Shown: piece after piece, positions 8,177 to 30,188 of the stretch
Position numbering within the stretch: position 1 is the stretch's first letter
Layout of the letters: each line of letters starts with the position of its first letter
Origin: Anaerolineales bacterium
GTDB taxonomy: Bacteria; Chloroflexota; Anaerolineae; Anaerolineales; DRKV01
Reading direction: 5' to 3'
NCBI GenBank assembly: GCA_024763355.1
Contig: JANTFR010000005.1
Coordinates: 1 to 36,449, forward strand
DNA length: 36,449 nt
Notes under the pieces: model-generated
What the model saw: the letters and a program-made list of their open reading frames with translations, nothing else
Told to the model about the DNA's origin: nothing
The model's database searches: none
Translations under genes and position numbers: made by a program

Positions 8177-8226
8177 GCGGGAGTACGAAAAGGCTGTTGG
8201 AGGAAATCCGCCCGACCTGGACGAAA

Positions 8227-8367
8227 GAACGCGGATTGCGCAGATTTCACGCAGATACCCGCAGCGCAGGCAAATGAAGCGTCGAAAATCAGCGCGAATC
8301 AGCGTGCATCAGCGCCATCAGCGTTCTGCTGCCCGGCAGGACAGCGTGTGCCCTCCAACACATCTTT
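8227..8367. repeat. Dispersed intergenic repeat, copy 2
   Basis: GATACCCGCAGCGCAGGCAAATGAAGCG and CCCGGCAGGACAGCGTGTGCCCTCCAACACATCTTT (34/36 identical to 857-892); internal ATCAGCG units at 8288, 8298, 8308 and 8317. Confidence 0.8.
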
Positions 8368-8391
8368 GGTGCTGCCCCCTGAACGAAGCGC

Positions 8392-8420
8392 TTGCCGAAT
8401 ACTCCCGGAAAGGTTAGAAT
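8392..8420 (+). promoter_or_regulatory. Putative promoter of folC (possibly leaderless)
   Basis: TTGCCG-N17-TAGAAT with only 6 nt between the -10 and the ATG at 8427. Confidence 0.6.
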
Positions 8421-8426
8421 CTCCCC

Positions 8427-9824
8427 ATGTCCACCGAGAGAGACGCGGCTTATCAGGCCGCCCTGGATTACATTTACAGTTTCGTTGATTTCAGCCGCAA
8501 GCGCAACCTGACCGCCGATGAGGCCCGTTTCGATTTGCGCCGGATGCGCGGCTTTGCCGCCCGTCTGGGCAATCCCCAGCAGGCGTATCCCGTCATCCAC
8601 ATCGCGGGGACGAAAGGCAAGGGGTCGGTGGCCTCCCTGTGCGCCGGCGCGTTGCAAGCCGCGGGCTATCGGGTGGGACTGTACACCTCCCCGCATATGC
8701 AGGAGTTCACCGAGCGGATGCGCGTGGACGGCGAAGAAATTCCGCCCGATGTACTGGCCGCCCTGGTGGAGGAAATCAAGCCTCACGTGGCCGCCACCCC
8801 TCTGTTGACCACTTTCGAGATTACTACCGCCCTGGCTTTTTTGTATTTCGCCCGTCAGAACGTGGATGTGGCCGTCACCGAAGTGGGGCTGGGTGGCCGG
8901 CTGGACGCTACCAACATCGTCGAACCGGCCCTCTCGGTAATCACATCCCTCTCCTACGACCACGCCGCCATCCTGGGGGATACCTTGAGCAAAATTGCCG
9001 CCGAAAAAGCGGGCATCATCAAGCCGGGGCGTCCGGTGGTGCTGGCCCCGCAAAAAGAGGAAGCCCGCCGCGTGGTAACGCGCATCGCCGCCGAGCGCAG
9101 TGCGCCTCTCGTCCAGGTAGGCACGGACTGGTTTTACGCTTCCCTTTCCCATTCGCTGGAAGGCCAGACCATGCTGGTCTGGTCTGCAGATGAACAACCG
9201 TTGGTGGATGCTTATATCAATTCCGGCGGAGAGCACGAGTGGGAGCCGACCCGTTTGCAGTTGCATCTCTTGGGGCATCATCAGGTGGAGAACGCGGCTA
9301 CCGCGTTTGCCGCTCTGCAAGTTTTTCGAGAAACAACCTTGCCCGTTTCTTTAGAAGATATCCAGCGGGGGTTTGCCAGCACCCGCTGGCCGGGGCGCTT
9401 TGAACTCCTGCGCCGCTACCCGCCGGTGGTGATTGACGCCGCCCACAACCGTGATTCGGCCTTGCGTTTGCGCCTGGCCCTGGACGACTACTTCCCCACG
9501 TACCCCGTCGTGCTGGTTTTCGGCGCCTCGGAGGACAAAGACGTAGAGGGCATGTTTGCCGAATTGCTGCCCCGAGTCCAGCACGTGATTGCCACCCGTT
9601 CCGTGCATCCCCGCGCCCTGGAACCGCAAAAACTTGTGCCCCTGGGAGCGAAATTCGCCCGGCGCGTGCAGGTCATCGAACCGATTGAGGACGCCTTGCA
9701 GGAGGCGCTGCGCGTTGCAGGCGATGAGTCCCTGGTGCTGGTTACGGGCAGCATTTTCGTGGCCGCCGCGGCCCGTAATGTGTGGGAAGTGTCGGATATC
9801 AGGCATCAGATACCAGGCGTGTAG
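8427..9824 (+). CDS. folC: Bifunctional folylpolyglutamate synthase/dihydrofolate synthase
   Basis: VIHIAGTKGKGSVASLCAGAL, YTSPHMQEFTERM, VTEVGLGGRLDATNI, VIDAAHNRDSA. Confidence 0.96.
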   Translation: MSTERDAAYQAALDYIYSFVDFSRKRNLTADEARFDLRRMRGFAARLGNPQQAYPVIHIAGTKGKGSVASLCAGALQAAGYRVGLYTSPHMQEFTERMRVDGEEIPPDVLAALVEEIKPHVAATPLLTTFEITTALAFLYFARQNVDVAVTEVGLGGRLDATNIVEPALSVITSLSYDHAAILGDTLSKIAAEKAGIIKPGRPVVLAPQKEEARRVVTRIAAERSAPLVQVGTDWFYASLSHSLEGQTMLVWSADEQPLVDAYINSGGEHEWEPTRLQLHLLGHHQVENAATAFAALQVFRETTLPVSLEDIQRGFASTRWPGRFELLRRYPPVVIDAAHNRDSALRLRLALDDYFPTYPVVLVFGASEDKDVEGMFAELLPRVQHVIATRSVHPRALEPQKLVPLGAKFARRVQVIEPIEDALQEALRVAGDESLVLVTGSIFVAAAARNVWEVSDIRHQIPGV

Positions 9825-9835
9825 AGGGACGTGCC

Positions 9836-9930
9836 CGCCCGACCAGGCGACTACCCGACAACCTGACCGCCCAACCACTTGACTACCCGACTACCCGACT
9901 ACCCGACTATCTGACTACCCGACTACATCC
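9836..9930 (+). repeat. Octamer tandem array immediately upstream of lon ATG
   Basis: 11 in-phase 8-mers: CGCCCGAC CAGGCGAC TACCCGAC AACCTGAC CGCCCAAC CACTTGAC TACCCGAC x3 TATCTGAC TACCCGAC, then TACATCC-ATG. Confidence 0.95.
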
Positions 9931-12435
9931 ATGTACAACGACGATTTTGATTGGGACGACCCCTCAGAAGACTGGGATGAGGAAACCTTCTCTCCAGAGG
10001 ATGAAGATTTCTTCACCCTTTTACAGCAGCGTACCGATGAACTCTACGCCATCCCGGATGCCGAACCGGATGAAGATGGCACCATTACTGCTGCCGTGCT
10101 CCCGCTGCGGGATGTAGTGGTTTTCCCGCGGATGGTCTCCCCCGTTTTTGTGGGGCGTTCCGTTTCCCTGCAAGCCATCGAGGCGGCGCAGAGGCGGGGA
10201 GAGACGATGATAGCCCTCCTGCAGAAAGACCCGCAGGTGGACGACCCCTCGCCGCAGGATTTCTACTCCATCGGTGTGGAGATGGCCGTGGGGCGGCTGA
10301 TACGCGTCCCTGATGGGGCCAGGGCCGCGCTCGTGCAGGCGCGCCGCCGCCTGGAACTTGTCCACATCACGCAGGCCGATGGGTACTTCCAGGCTAAAGC
10401 CCGGATTGTGAGTGAGTACATCGAGATAGACGAACAGGTGCAGGCCAACATGCGTACCGTGTTGGCCCTTTTTGAGCGCGTCGCCCAACTCAACGATGCT
10501 ATCCCCGAAGACGCCTACCTGTTTGCCATGAACATTGACGAGCCGGGCGTGCTGGCCGACATGGTAGCGACCTCGTTGAACATTAGTTTGAGTGACCGCC
10601 TGGAACTTCTTTTCATGTTCAACCCCCTCAAGCGTTTGGAAAAAGTGCTTTCATTGCTCAACAAGGAATTGCAGGTACTCGAACTGAGCGACGAAATCCA
10701 GAACCGCACCCAAACGGAGATGGACCGTTCCCAGCGGGAGTATTACCTGCGCGAGCAGATGAAGGTCATTCAGTCCGAACTGGGGGAGGGCGACCCCTGG
10801 ACGCGGGAGGTCAACGAACTGCGCGCCAAAGTCGAGGCGGCGGAACTCCCCGATGAAGTGCAGGCCCGCGCCCTGCGGGAGGTGGAACGTCTTTCCCAGA
10901 TGCCGCCCATGTCCCCGGAGGGGGGCGTCATCCGCTCTTACCTGGAGTGGATTCTGGAACTCCCCTGGGCGAATCTCACCGAGGACAACCTGGATTTGAA
11001 GCATGCCACCGAAGTGCTGGAGCGCAACCACTACGGCCTGCCCCGCGCCAAAGAGCGCATTCTGGAGTACATCGCCGTGCGCAGCCTCAAACCGGAGAAA
11101 GCCGCCCGGCAGCCCATTTTGTGCTTTGTAGGCCCGCCGGGAACGGGCAAGACCTCCCTGGGACGCTCGATTGCCGAAGCGCTGGGACGCAAATTCGTGC
11201 GCGTCTCGTTGGGCGGAGTGCGCGATGAAGCCGAAATCCGCGGCCACCGGCGCACCTACATCGGCGCGCTGCCCGGACGTATCCTCCAAACCATCCGCCG
11301 GGCCGGGACGCGCAACCCCCTCTTCATGCTGGACGAGATTGATAAACTGGGCAGCGACTACCGCGGCGATCCCTCCTCTGCCTTGCTGGAAGTCCTCGAC
11401 CCGGAGCAAAACCACGCTTTCTCTGACCACTATCTGGAAGTACCCTTCGATCTTTCGCAGGTTATGTTCATCACTACGGCCAACACGGAAGCCACCATCC
11501 CGCCTGCCTTGCTCGACCGGATGGAAGTCATCGAATTTCCCGGCTACATCGAGGAGGAGAAAGTCGAGATTGCCCGCCGTTTCCTCATCCCCCGCCAAAT
11601 CGAGGAAAGCGGTCTGGAGCCGAAAGAAATCCACTTCTCCGCGGGAGCCTTGCAGCGTATCATCCGGGAATATACCTACGAGGCCGGAGTGCGTAACCTG
11701 GAGCGGGAAATCGGGCGTGTCTGCCGCAAAATCGCCCGCCTGAAGGCTGCCGGCAAGCCCTATCCCTCGCAAATCACCGCCGCCAGCATGGAGAAATTCC
11801 TTGGCCCGCCCCAGTTCTTCAATCAGGAAGCGGAGCGCGAGGACGAAGTCGGGGTGGCGACCGCTCTGGCCTGGACGCCCAACGGGGGTGAAATCATGCC
11901 CGTGGAGGTGCAACTTGTCCCCGGAAAAGGCAATTTGCAAATTACCGGCCAGATTGGCGACGTGATGCAGGAATCCGCCCAGGCCGGGATGACGTATCTC
12001 AAGGCGCACGCGGACGAATTCGGGCTGGACAGCGAGATATTCGACCAACTAGACGTTCACATCCACATCCCCGAAGGCGCTATCCCCAAGGACGGCCCCA
12101 GCGCGGGCGTGACCATCGCCACGGCGCTCATCTCGGCCTTCACGGGGCGTCTCGTGCGGCACGATGTAGGCATGACGGGCGAGATTACTTTGCGCGGGCG
12201 CGTCCTGCCGGTGGGAGGCGTGCGCGAGAAGGTGCTGGCCGCCCATCGTGCCGGTATCAAGACCATCCTCTTGCCGGAGAAAAACCGCAAAGACCTTGTG
12301 GATATTCCCAAGAAGGCGCGCAACGACCTCAACTTGATTTTCACCCGCCGCATGGAAGACGTGTTGAGGGAAGCCCTGCTCCCTGACGTGGTTCAGCCGC
12401 CTCGTTTGCCGAAACGCGAGGCCGAGAACGATTGA
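9931..12435 (+). CDS. lon: ATP-dependent protease La (Lon)
   Basis: LPLRDVVVFPRMVSPVFVGR, GPPGTGKTSLGRSIA Walker A, FMLDEIDKLG Walker B, PKDGPSAGVTIATALISA catalytic Ser. Confidence 0.98.
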   Translation: MYNDDFDWDDPSEDWDEETFSPEDEDFFTLLQQRTDELYAIPDAEPDEDGTITAAVLPLRDVVVFPRMVSPVFVGRSVSLQAIEAAQRRGETMIALLQKDPQVDDPSPQDFYSIGVEMAVGRLIRVPDGARAALVQARRRLELVHITQADGYFQAKARIVSEYIEIDEQVQANMRTVLALFERVAQLNDAIPEDAYLFAMNIDEPGVLADMVATSLNISLSDRLELLFMFNPLKRLEKVLSLLNKELQVLELSDEIQNRTQTEMDRSQREYYLREQMKVIQSELGEGDPWTREVNELRAKVEAAELPDEVQARALREVERLSQMPPMSPEGGVIRSYLEWILELPWANLTEDNLDLKHATEVLERNHYGLPRAKERILEYIAVRSLKPEKAARQPILCFVGPPGTGKTSLGRSIAEALGRKFVRVSLGGVRDEAEIRGHRRTYIGALPGRILQTIRRAGTRNPLFMLDEIDKLGSDYRGDPSSALLEVLDPEQNHAFSDHYLEVPFDLSQVMFITTANTEATIPPALLDRMEVIEFPGYIEEEKVEIARRFLIPRQIEESGLEPKEIHFSAGALQRIIREYTYEAGVRNLEREIGRVCRKIARLKAAGKPYPSQITAASMEKFLGPPQFFNQEAEREDEVGVATALAWTPNGGEIMPVEVQLVPGKGNLQITGQIGDVMQESAQAGMTYLKAHADEFGLDSEIFDQLDVHIHIPEGAIPKDGPSAGVTIATALISAFTGRLVRHDVGMTGEITLRGRVLPVGGVREKVLAAHRAGIKTILLPEKNRKDLVDIPKKARNDLNLIFTRRMEDVLREALLPDVVQPPRLPKREAEND

Positions 12436-26783: not shown

Positions 26784-27668
26784 CTAGGGAATCAGCAGTC
26801 CGGCGGCAAAGAGTAGGGCGTAAAGCAAGGTCAGTTGGCCGGTGCCGGCCAGCGCCTGGTTCAGGATGCGCCCTTTTTGAGTGGCAACCACTTTCCAGAT
26901 TTTCCAGGCCGCGGGGATGGAAAGCAGGGTCAGCAGCGGCCAGGGGGAAGTTTCTCCGCGGAGCCACAGGATGAAGGGGACGAGATAACTGCCAAGCAGC
27001 AGGAGGGCGTATTCGGCTTTCGTGCCGTTTTCTCCCAGGCGTACCGCCACGGTGTGTTTGCCCGTCTTGCGGTCGGTCTCGATGTCCCGCAGGTTGTTGA
27101 CCACCAAAATGTTTGTGGTCAGGAAGCCCATCGGGAGGGCGGCCCACCACGCCAACGCAGGGACGGCGCGCATCTGCACGAAGACTGTCCCGCAGACTGC
27201 TGCCAACCCGAAGAAGAGGAAAACGAACAGGTCGCCCAGGCCGTGATAGCCCAAAGGGTAAGGGCCGCCGGTGTAGGCAATCGCCGAAAGGATGGCGGCT
27301 ACACCCACCACCAGAATCGGCCAGCCGCCTGCCGAGATGAGGTACACACCCAGCAGGGCCGCCAGCCCAAAGGAAACCCACATGCCGGCGAAGACCTGTT
27401 GTAAACTCAGCAGGCCGGTCTGGGTGACGCGCACGGGGCCGAGACGCTCCTCCGTGTCGGCGCCTTTCTGGAAGTCGTAGGCGTCATTGGCGAAGTTCGC
27501 CCCGATTTGAATGAGGAGCGCCCCGAAGAAGGCCGCCAGCCAGGGCAGCAGGCGGAAGCCGCCCTGCGCCGCGGCGACTGCTCCTCCTACGATGACGGGC
27601 GCCGCGGCCGCAGGGAGGGTTTTGGGGCGGGAAGCGAGAATCCAGGGGTTTTGGTTTATTGGTTGCAT
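26784..27668 (-). CDS. menA: 1,4-dihydroxy-2-naphthoate polyprenyltransferase (UbiA family)
   Basis: [73 protein letters not shown]. Confidence 0.93.
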
Positions 27669-27740
27669 TGGTTCATTAGTTCATTAGTTCATTGGTTCGT
27701 TGGTTCGTTGGCTGGCTGGTCGGTTGATTCGTTCGTTGGT
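27669..27740 (-). repeat. Octamer tandem array immediately upstream of menA ATG
   Basis: Nine in-phase 8-mers (+ strand): TGGTTCAT TAGTTCAT TAGTTCAT TGGTTCGT TGGTTCGT TGGCTGGC TGGTCGGT TGATTCGT TCGTTGGT. Confidence 0.93.
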
Positions 27741-27878
27741 TCACCGGGGCCTGACGCCGCTGCGCATTGTGCGGGACAACCTCGCCTTCCCCGTACCACA
27801 ACGCTCTGTGTTGTGCTGTGCGGGACACACTCGCCACTCCGCACCTCCTGACCCGCAACCCCCTAACTTCGCAACTCC

Positions 27879-30188
27879 CTACCCCGCAACCCCTATGATG
27901 CGAAAAATCATCTCCGGAGCCGGGAACTCCCTCGCGTGCTGCCGCGTCAGGTGGACGGTTTCGCCGCGGCGTTGGAGGATGAAGGTTTCCAGGCGGGAGG
28001 GGCCGTAGCCGTCGCCCGCGTCAAGGTAGAGATGCGAGGTATGCGGGCGCTCGTCGCCGGGCAGGGGGGCGTAGAGACGTACTTCCAAGAGGCCGTTCTC
28101 GGAGCGCAGGGGCAGGGCGCTGCCGGCGCGCACGAAAAGCGGGATGCGCTCCAGGGGGGCGGCGATTCTCTCCGGGCCGGGGGCGGGGTAAACGCGCTCC
28201 TCCCAAAAGTCGTACCAGCCTCCCGGGGGCAGGAGCACATCGCGGGCACGTCCGCCTTCTTCCAAAATCGGAGCAACCAGCAGGGAATCGCCCAGCAGGA
28301 AGGCGTCATCCACATCCCAAGAGTCGGGATTGTCGGGCCAATCCCAGAAAAGGGGGCGCAGCAGGGGAAGGCCATCTTCGGCGGCCTGCCAGGCCAGCGT
28401 GTACCAGTAGGGCAGCAGGCGGTCGCGCAGGCGGATGGCGGCGCGCACCCGCTCCCGCGTGCGGTGGTCGAAACGCCAGGGTTCGCGGGGCGGCAGGCCG
28501 GTGGCGGAATGCAGGCGGAAGAAGGGCGTGAAGGCAGCCATTTGGAACCAGCGCAGGTACAATTCGGGGTCGGGGTGGCCGCTGAAGCCGCCGATGTCGG
28601 AGCCACTGTAGTAGATGCCGGAGAGGCTGAGGTTGAGCAGGATGGCAACCGTGCGCCGCAGGGCGGGCCAGGAACTCTCCACGTCGCCCGTCCAATGCCA
28701 GGCGTATCGCTGCACGCCCGCCCAGCCGGAGCGGGTCAGGTTCCAGGGACGCTTTTCGGGGCGGTAGAGACGCTGAGCCTCGAAGCCGGCGCGGTTCATC
28801 AGCAGGGCGTACAGGTTGTGCCCTTCGCGGTGCGTGCCGCCGCGCCCCTCGAAATCGTGGCGCAGGGTGCGCGGCAGGGTCGCTTCTCCCCAGGCGGCGA
28901 AGGCCGCCGGTTCGTTCATGTCGTGCCAGAAGCCGCTGATGCCCTGGTCGAGCAGGCGGGGGTAGAAACTGCCCCACCAGCGCCGCGTTTTGGGAGCGGT
29001 GAAATCGGGAAAGTAGCACCATCCCGGCCAGACCAGCCCTTTGTGAGGCCGTCCGTCCGGCTGGGCACAGAAGACGCCCTCCTCCAGCCCGCTGCGCGCC
29101 ACGGTGTATTGGGAATCGGCCTTGACGCCGGGGTCCAGGATAGTCACCAGACGGATGCCCTGCGCCTGCATCTCCTCGGCCAGGGCGGGCAAGTCGGGGA
29201 AGCGCTGCGGATGGACGGTGAAGACGCGATAACCGTCCATGTAGTCGATGTCCAGGTGGATGGCGCTGAGGGGGATGTCGTACTCGGCGAAGCCTGCCGC
29301 CACCTCGCGGATGTCGGCCTCGTCCTTGTAGCCCCAGCGGGACTGATGATACCCCAACGCCCAGCGGGGCGGGAGGGGAGGGCGTCCGGTCAGTTCGGTG
29401 TAGCGCGCCAAAAGACGCCGTGGTTCCCCTGCAATCAGGTAGTAGCGCAACGCCCCGCCCGTGAAGGCGGTTTCCACCCTGCCCTCCGTGAAGGTCACTT
29501 CACCCTCGAAGGCGTTTTCGTAGAAGACCAGATAACTGCCCCCGCGGTGCAGCCCCAGGTAGAGCGGGATGTTGAGGTAGATTGCGGGACTATCCGGGCC
29601 GTAACTGCCGCCGGGGTCCAGGTTCCACAGGCGGATGCGCCTGCCCGGTGCGTTGCGCGCCAGCGGGGCGGCGCTTTCTCCCAGGCCGTAGATGCGTTCT
29701 TCGGGGCGCAGGCGCGCCGCGTGGCGGATGTGTTCCTGGGCGAAACGGGGCGGTTCCTCGCGGCGCAGGAGCGTTCCTTGCGGGGTGTGGAGGCTCAGCG
29801 CGCCCTTGCGGGAGATGCGGACTTCCAGCGCGGCGGTGCGGAGTTGCCATCCCTCGGCGGTCTCCTCCATCTCGACCTCCACCGGCGGCCACTTCTCCCC
29901 GGCGATGGCGTAAGGGAGGGGCATCCGCCCCGGCTGCCAGGTGAGGCGCGCCATCTCCGGGGCGAGGAAAGCGATTCCCAGGCGGCGCGCGCCGAAGGCA
30001 ATCTCGTACTCCCCTGTCTCCCGGCGGCGGATGCTCTGGGCGCTTTCGGGCGGGCGGAAATCTGCCTCCGGCGGGGAGGCGGGCGCGCCCTCGAGAGCAT
30101 CCCGCAGGAGGGCATAGCGCACGGTGCGCAGGGTGGGGAGCAGCCCGATGAACCGAACGGCGTCGATGAATTTTCTCAAAGGGGGCAT
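27879..30188 (-). CDS. GH31 family alpha-glucosidase
   Basis: ERIYGLGE, PRWALGYHQSRWGYKDEADI, IHLDIDYMDGYRVFT, GFWHDMNEPAAF, WTGDVESSWPALR, GSDIGGFSG. Start taken as MPPLRKF. Confidence 0.95.
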   Translation of the reverse strand: MPPLRKFIDAVRFIGLLPTLRTVRYALLRDALEGAPASPPEADFRPPESAQSIRRRETGEYEIAFGARRLGIAFLAPEMARLTWQPGRMPLPYAIAGEKWPPVEVEMEETAEGWQLRTAALEVRISRKGALSLHTPQGTLLRREEPPRFAQEHIRHAARLRPEERIYGLGESAAPLARNAPGRRIRLWNLDPGGSYGPDSPAIYLNIPLYLGLHRGGSYLVFYENAFEGEVTFTEGRVETAFTGGALRYYLIAGEPRRLLARYTELTGRPPLPPRWALGYHQSRWGYKDEADIREVAAGFAEYDIPLSAIHLDIDYMDGYRVFTVHPQRFPDLPALAEEMQAQGIRLVTILDPGVKADSQYTVARSGLEEGVFCAQPDGRPHKGLVWPGWCYFPDFTAPKTRRWWGSFYPRLLDQGISGFWHDMNEPAAFAAWGEATLPRTLRHDFEGRGGTHREGHNLYALLMNRAGFEAQRLYRPEKRPWNLTRSGWAGVQRYAWHWTGDVESSWPALRRTVAILLNLSLSGIYYSGSDIGGFSGHPDPELYLRWFQMAAFTPFFRLHSATGLPPREPWRFDHRTRERVRAAIRLRDRLLPYWYTLAWQAAEDGLPLLRPLFWDWPDNPDSWDVDDAFLLGDSLLVAPILEEGGRARDVLLPPGGWYDFWEERVYPAPGPERIAAPLERIPLFVRAGSALPLRSENGLLEVRLYAPLPGDERPHTSHLYLDAGDGYGPSRLETFILQRRGETVHLTRQHAREFPAPEMIFRIIGVAG

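What the first reader, a model, noticed from the sequence alone, without database searches (positions are those of the whole stretch)
9836..9930. Eleven-unit period-8 array ends directly at the lon start codon
The sequence upstream of lon parses without slippage into 8-mers with consensus NNCCCGAC/TACCCGAC and runs to TACATCC-ATG. There is no Shine-Dalgarno. The sense-strand leader is A/C/T-rich and poor in G, so it should be unstructured. The fixed 8-bp phase despite unit divergence argues against a simple microsatellite. It could be a binding platform (octamer = phased protein or RNA contacts), a translation-enhancer leader or a small repeat family; function is inference.
Basis: partly seen in the sequence, partly recalled or inferred. 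Interest (0 to 1): 0.75.

Follow-up and report, generated by a model that had tools for sequence, protein, structure and literature searches.

The report
Octamer repeat leader before lon
The 11-unit repeat in front of the lon gene is real and is one of many short repeat arrays that fill the gaps between genes in this bacterium, ending in front of start codons where a ribosome-binding site would normally be and probably keeping the messenger RNA unfolded so ribosomes can start.

Summary
Eleven phased 8-mers (consensus CGACTACC) occupy 9840-9927 and end 3 nt before the lon ATG (9931). There is no Shine-Dalgarno (SD), and the last 50 nt have a predicted MFE of 0. The host is an uncultured Anaerolineae (Chloroflexota) MAG.

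The array is not lon-specific. It is absent in front of lon in all checked relatives. In 795 kb of the same genome, period 7-10 arrays make up about 11% of intergenic DNA. They are strand-polar. Sense-strand CCCGACTA runs end 2-11 nt before start codons in 11 of 14 gaps (1.8 expected); reverse-complement runs sit on stop codons. The pattern recurs in a sister species and in distant Anaerolineae. Array-led starts lack SD (0/44 vs 105/192) and are less structured than other SD-less starts. In the sister species (about 91% protein identity) most shared gaps also hold arrays, but usually of other unit families.

So unit sequence looks dispensable, while gene-boundary position, strand composition and openness are kept. 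Best reading: rapidly replaced repeat spacers, tolerated or favoured as unstructured SD-independent leaders. The nearest precedent is the TAACTGA repeats of Beggiatoaceae. New variant of a known kind; function inferred.

The parts
9840..9927 (+). Eleven-unit period-8 array, sense unit CGACTACC (same as ACCCGACT cyclically), ending 3 nt before lon
9931..12435 (+). lon (endopeptidase La), ATG start without SD; N-terminus agrees with orthologues (M....[DN]W)
8427..9824 (+). folC; the folC-lon pair is conserved across the order, with gaps usually -4 to about 100 nt
9792..9832 (+). Weak period-7 stretch (ATCAGGC ATCAGAT ACCAGGC ...) covering the folC stop codon, a likely trailer-type array
   Evidence: shuffle p = 0.004
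9825..9930 (+). folC-lon gap (106 nt): presumed intra-operon spacer and lon leader; no promoter-like or terminator-like site found

Best explanation
The lon array is one instance of a genome-wide class of degenerate short-period (7-10 bp) tandem arrays that fill gaps between genes in this Anaerolineae lineage. Shown by sequence: the arrays are strand-polar with respect to gene boundaries. In front of starts the sense strand is C-rich and G-poor (CCCGACTA, CCAATGAAC and others). Behind stops it is G-rich and often contains the stop codon (TAGTCGGG, GGTAGACGG, CACGAATGA). Array-led starts lack SD and have unusually open RNA around the start codon. Inferred: arrays arise and turn over by replication slippage plus copying between sites, and persist where they do no harm, in transcribed spacers. 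At starts the surviving orientation gives an unfolded, SD-free leader on which ribosomes can initiate, or re-initiate after folC, at the first exposed AUG. Openness, not unit sequence, is what is kept. For lon this means a permissive SD-independent leader inside the folC-lon transcript, not a specific regulatory site.
For: Genome-wide: 228 own-genome hits to two octamers versus 3 for the reversed control. Period-7 to -10 arrays are 86-100% intergenic at each period, and none occur in shuffles. Orientation: motif 8a sense in 29 gaps, antisense in 6; 7a 31 versus 1; AACCAATG 26 versus 2. Sense 8a runs end 2-11 nt from the start in 11/14 gaps versus 1.8 expected. This recurs in the sister species G002 (distances -2 to 14 nt). 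In distant families G251, G266 and G403 about half the distances are within 14 nt, while antisense runs there lie on stop codons. GC-skew polarity of array gaps: 45/51 own, 29/33 G002, 11/12 distant; none in non-array gaps. SD 0/44 in arrays reaching the start versus 105/192, p = 2e-13. Structure around the start codon: -2.3 kcal/mol versus -7.8 in other SD-less genes, p = 3e-9; repeated in G002, p = 0.007. Unit families are mostly replaced at orthologous gaps of G002: 8-mer sharing 0.049 versus 0.024 for unrelated gaps. Array-led genes are functionally unrelated housekeeping genes. Published precedent that lack of structure permits SD-independent initiation: PMC3121790.
Against: No expression data. 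The arrays may be neutral filler with the polarity imposed by purifying selection only. Leader openness does not explain why trailers are G-rich. A few arrays lie upstream of TATAAT-like boxes (e.g. L058 8814-8872) and so outside transcripts. The lon array is absent in relatives that manage without it. Gene starts come from a simple home-made caller.
Confidence: 0.55

Rival explanations
1. Neutral filler: tandem duplications of 7-10 bp arise often in this lineage and are simply not removed from dispensable intra-operon gaps. Polarity only reflects purging of harmful orientations (G-rich leaders, stop-free trailers), and arrays add nothing to expression.
For: Arrays fill gaps from stop to start, extend into the last and first codons, and are nearly absent from coding DNA. 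They are gained and lost between sister species (8 and 4 of 29 gaps). They spare conserved regulatory parts of gaps, such as an SD or a conserved leader.
Against: Unit families are shared between many unrelated loci and between distant genomes, which slippage from local seeds does not give. mutS is intact. Tight anchoring of 8a to starts and very low structure even against other SD-less genes go beyond neglect.
Confidence: 0.28
2. Sequence-specific platform: a protein or small RNA binds the octamer repeatedly and controls lon and other genes, as proposed for TAACTGA repeats (S1, Csp or Csr family candidates).
For: Genome-wide shared unit, invariant AC positions and near-invariant G, fixed 8-bp phase, start-codon anchoring; published proposal for a similar repeat (PMC4679880).
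Against: Orthologous boundaries carry different unit families and different periods in the sister species. Downstream genes share no function. At lon itself relatives lack it. No Rfam match.
Confidence: 0.08
3. Spread of preformed arrays by a copying or mobile process (template switching, RNA-templated synthesis or ectopic recombination) that places units at gene boundaries with fixed polarity.
For: The same families occur in many loci and in scattered lineages of the class (65 of 397 genomes); near-complete swapping at orthologous gaps; inverted array pairs in gaps.
Against: No enzyme, template RNA or insertion footprint was identified; the scans of viral contigs returned no answer. Selection among randomly placed arrays could give the same polarity.
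Confidence: 0.09

Closest known systems
TAACTGA heptamer direct repeats of marine Beggiatoaceae, some Cyanobacteria and Bacteroidetes (MacGregor 2015, PMC4679880)
   Same: Short tandem repeats, mostly intergenic, in forward orientation ending about 1 nt before start codons; they replace the SD; no functional theme among downstream genes; reverse-oriented copies reported at a stop codon; overlap of upstream ORF ends; patchy distribution.
   Different: There a single 7-mer with 2-6 copies. Here a pool of 7-, 8-, 9- and 10-mer families, degenerate, often composite and filling the whole stop-to-start gap, with different families at orthologous boundaries of sister species, in Anaerolineae.
GGGAATC / GGGGA(C/T)T heptamer repeats of Xanthomonas and Nostoc (PMC4692102); cyanobacterial STRR heptamers
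   Same: Genome-wide families of degenerate intergenic heptamer arrays, mostly between same-direction genes, with length and sequence varying between relatives.
   Different: Those are G-rich and quadruplex-forming, with no strand preference reported in the passages read (30% and 35% on the two strands). Here polarity to gene boundaries is strong and the leader strand is G-poor.
SD-independent initiation on unstructured leaders (Scharff et al. 2011, PMC3121790)
   Same: No SD and minimal RNA structure at the start codon.
   Different: Known cases are defined by lack of structure, with no conserved motif found. Here the open leader is built of tandem repeats and is more open than other SD-less genes of the same genome.

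Membership tests
Start-codon-proximal short tandem repeats (TAACTGA-type) | Tandem short units, intergenic, forward-oriented, ending within a few nt of a start codon | tested here: met
   11/14 strong sense 8a runs end 2-11 nt from the start; lon at 3 nt
Start-codon-proximal short tandem repeats (TAACTGA-type) | Unit is TAACTGA or a close heptamer | tested here: not met
   Unit is the octamer CCCGACTA plus other 7-, 8-, 9- and 10-mers
Start-codon-proximal short tandem repeats (TAACTGA-type) | SD rare in repeat-led genes | tested here: met
   0/44 versus 105/192, p = 2e-13
Unstructured SD-independent leader | Minimum of RNA folding at the start codon without SD | tested here: met
   lon -35..+15 MFE -0.7
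Unstructured SD-independent leader | Translation depends on openness of the leader | not testable with these tools
   Needs reporter assays
Simple microsatellite from local slippage | Unit private to the locus; related unit at the orthologous site of close relatives | tested here: not met
   Families shared genome-wide; orthologous gaps mostly carry other families
Known structured RNA (riboswitch or leader) | Rfam match | tested here: not met
   No match up to E = 1 in 9500-10300

The most novel reading that the evidence does not exclude
Gene boundaries in these Anaerolineae are actively written with interchangeable repeat cassettes: a copying process (possibly RNA-templated) installs short-period arrays with C-rich polarity into starts and its reverse complement behind stops. 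Unit sequence is swapped freely while boundary type is kept, forming a sequence-independent system that insulates neighbouring genes and serves as SD-free initiation leaders.
Probability: 0.1. Interest if true: 0.88.

Novelty: new variant of a known kind. Interest (0 to 1): 0.6.

Why it matters
Repeats that replace ribosome-binding sites have been described for single heptamers with no settled function. Here a genus uses a whole pool of unit families at many gene boundaries, with a polarity rule that also appears in distant families and with near-complete unit swapping between sister species. That separates position and composition from sequence and makes a testable claim: the repeats matter through RNA openness, not through a binding motif. 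It also raises the question of how arrays with unrelated units come to occupy the same gaps so quickly.

Tried and rejected
Lon-specific regulation: rejected, absent before lon in relatives. Loss of mismatch repair as driver: full-length mutS is present. A known RNA family: none. Promoter or terminator in the gap: none predicted. Simple general feature of the class: 20-kb samples of 19 other Anaerolineae genomes have 0-7% of intergenic DNA in such arrays, mostly near zero, versus 11% here and 26% in part of G002. A>T skew as a universal rule: strong in the own genome, not repeated in G002. G001 (71% protein identity) mostly has ordinary gaps at orthologous sites. Mobility by viruses: two scans of viral contigs returned no answer, so this is open.

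Full report
OBSERVATION. The window is contig C5 of a 2.76-Mb, 285-contig MAG. Its Lon has 57-69% identity to Lon of Anaerolineales MAGs and isolates, so the host is an uncultured Anaerolineae (Chloroflexota). Lag-8 identity is 60/87, never reached in 20,000 shuffles or Markov resamples. There is no SD; the last 50 nt have MFE 0.0 (antisense -9.8) and the region -35..+15 has -0.7 kcal/mol. The upstream gene is folC and the pair folC-lon is conserved through the order with short gaps. No promoter-like or terminator-like site was found in the gap.

NOT LON-SPECIFIC. None of 41 named Lon loci has a periodic array upstream. The order-level genomes have short, mostly ordinary folC-lon gaps, and two of them carry other repeat-like leaders (G005, G006). 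The own genome has 228 near-matches to two octamers against 3 for the reversed control. In 795 kb fetched as stretches (655 genes by a home-made caller), arrays of period 7, 8, 9 and 10 number 64, 39, 19 and 12. They are overwhelmingly intergenic, and shuffles give none. About 11% of intergenic DNA is in arrays, against 0-7% (mostly near zero) in 20-kb samples of 19 other class members; a G002 sample has 26%. The window holds two more arrays (27644-27737, 27852-27893).

ANATOMY. Many same-direction gaps are filled from stop to start, often as composites: 7- or 10-mers on the stop side, 8- or 9-mers on the start side. Orientation follows the gene. CCCGACTA-type motifs are sense in 29 gaps and antisense in 6; GACGAC-type 31 versus 1; AACCAATG 26 versus 2. 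Strong sense octamer runs end at 2, 2, 3 (lon), 4, 5, 6, 6, 7, 7, 9 and 11 nt from the start, plus three exceptions; 11 of 14 are within 11 nt where uniform placement predicts 1.8. The few antisense runs sit on upstream stop codons. The same holds in G002, with sense distances of -2 to 14 nt. In distant families G251, G266 and G403 the distances run from -1 to 73 nt, about half within 14 nt, and antisense runs there lie on stop codons. Free of any motif choice, the GC skew of array gaps falls from stop side to start side in 45/51 (own), 29/33 (G002) and 11/12 (distant) gaps; non-array gaps show no trend.

TRANSLATION SIGNALS. Arrays that reach the start never have an SD (0/44), while 105/192 non-array gaps do (p = 2e-13). 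The array physically occupies the SD position, so this is partly built in. What is not built in is openness. Start regions of array-led genes average -2.3 kcal/mol against -7.8 for other SD-less genes (p = 3e-9), and in G002 -3.6 against -7.0 (p = 0.007). Ten other array-led genes include transaldolase, transketolase, FtsW/RodA, TsaD-like and a NiFe-hydrogenase-like protein, with no common theme.

TURNOVER. Against G002 (median protein identity 91%) 29 orthologous same-direction gaps were compared: 11 have arrays in both, 8 only in G002, 4 only here, 6 in neither. Where both have arrays, the unit families usually differ: own CCAATGCAA against CACCCAAT, own GGACGGT against CACGTATC. A minority share a family (e.g. 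the L238/L104-14 pair). Shared 8-mers average 0.049 for orthologous and 0.024 for unrelated gaps. Array presence and polarity are kept and sequence is mostly not. This is the main argument against a sequence-specific binding platform.

INTERPRETATION. Shown: a genome-wide class of boundary-polar arrays, lon being a member; no SD; open RNA; replacement of units. Inferred: transcription through the lon array, initiation on the open leader, and origin by slippage and copying. Scharff et al. (PMC3121790) showed that local absence of structure permits SD-independent initiation. The closest precedent for the architecture is the TAACTGA repeats of Beggiatoaceae: forward, ending about 1 nt before starts, SD rare (PMC4679880). 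This case differs in unit length, number of families, filling of whole gaps and swapping between sister species. No description for Chloroflexota was found in the papers searched; that search is limited to open-access text.

LIMITS. Statistics rest on 29% of a MAG and on a simple gene caller that rewards SD (which raises SD counts in the non-array group). Starts inside ATG-bearing arrays (CCAATGAAC) are uncertain. A minority of arrays lie outside probable transcripts. The scans of viral contigs failed. The G-rich trailer polarity has no tested explanation; stop-codon content is one candidate.

Noticed in passing
window 27644-27893: Two further arrays (TTGGTTCA period 8; CCCGCAAC-type) in one gap between minus-strand genes; read on the sense strand the leader is CCAATGAAC-type ending at the start codon.
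   Followed up: partly
window 8195-8400, upstream of folC: A dispersed repeat of about 180 bp (AATCAGCG... TGCCCGGCAGG ... CCTCCAACACATCTTTGGTGCT) with 87-92% copies in L055 (two), L092 and L059, plus shorter matches in L047 and L050.
   Followed up: partly
L041 2010-2160: A second dispersed element with inverted ends (GACTTCCGAGATTT ... AAATCTCGGAAGTC), at least 12 copies or fragments in the 795-kb sample, MITE-like.
   Followed up: partly
L213 1253-1315, L223 10606-10683, L215 4976-5279: In distant Anaerolineae one gap can carry inverted arrays: GGGTAGTC at the upstream stop and CCCGACTA at the downstream start, able to form a hairpin.
   Followed up: no
L116 17933-18184 (G001): Three octamer arrays spaced about 100 bp apart, two of them with the same flank GTTGGCGCTCAGCCTATA, as a larger repeat near the contig end.
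   Followed up: no
G002, many contig ends: Octamer arrays often lie at contig ends, so these repeats probably break short-read assemblies and are under-counted.
   Followed up: no
G000:C131 3089-5470: A second lon gene (53% identical) in the same genome.
   Followed up: no
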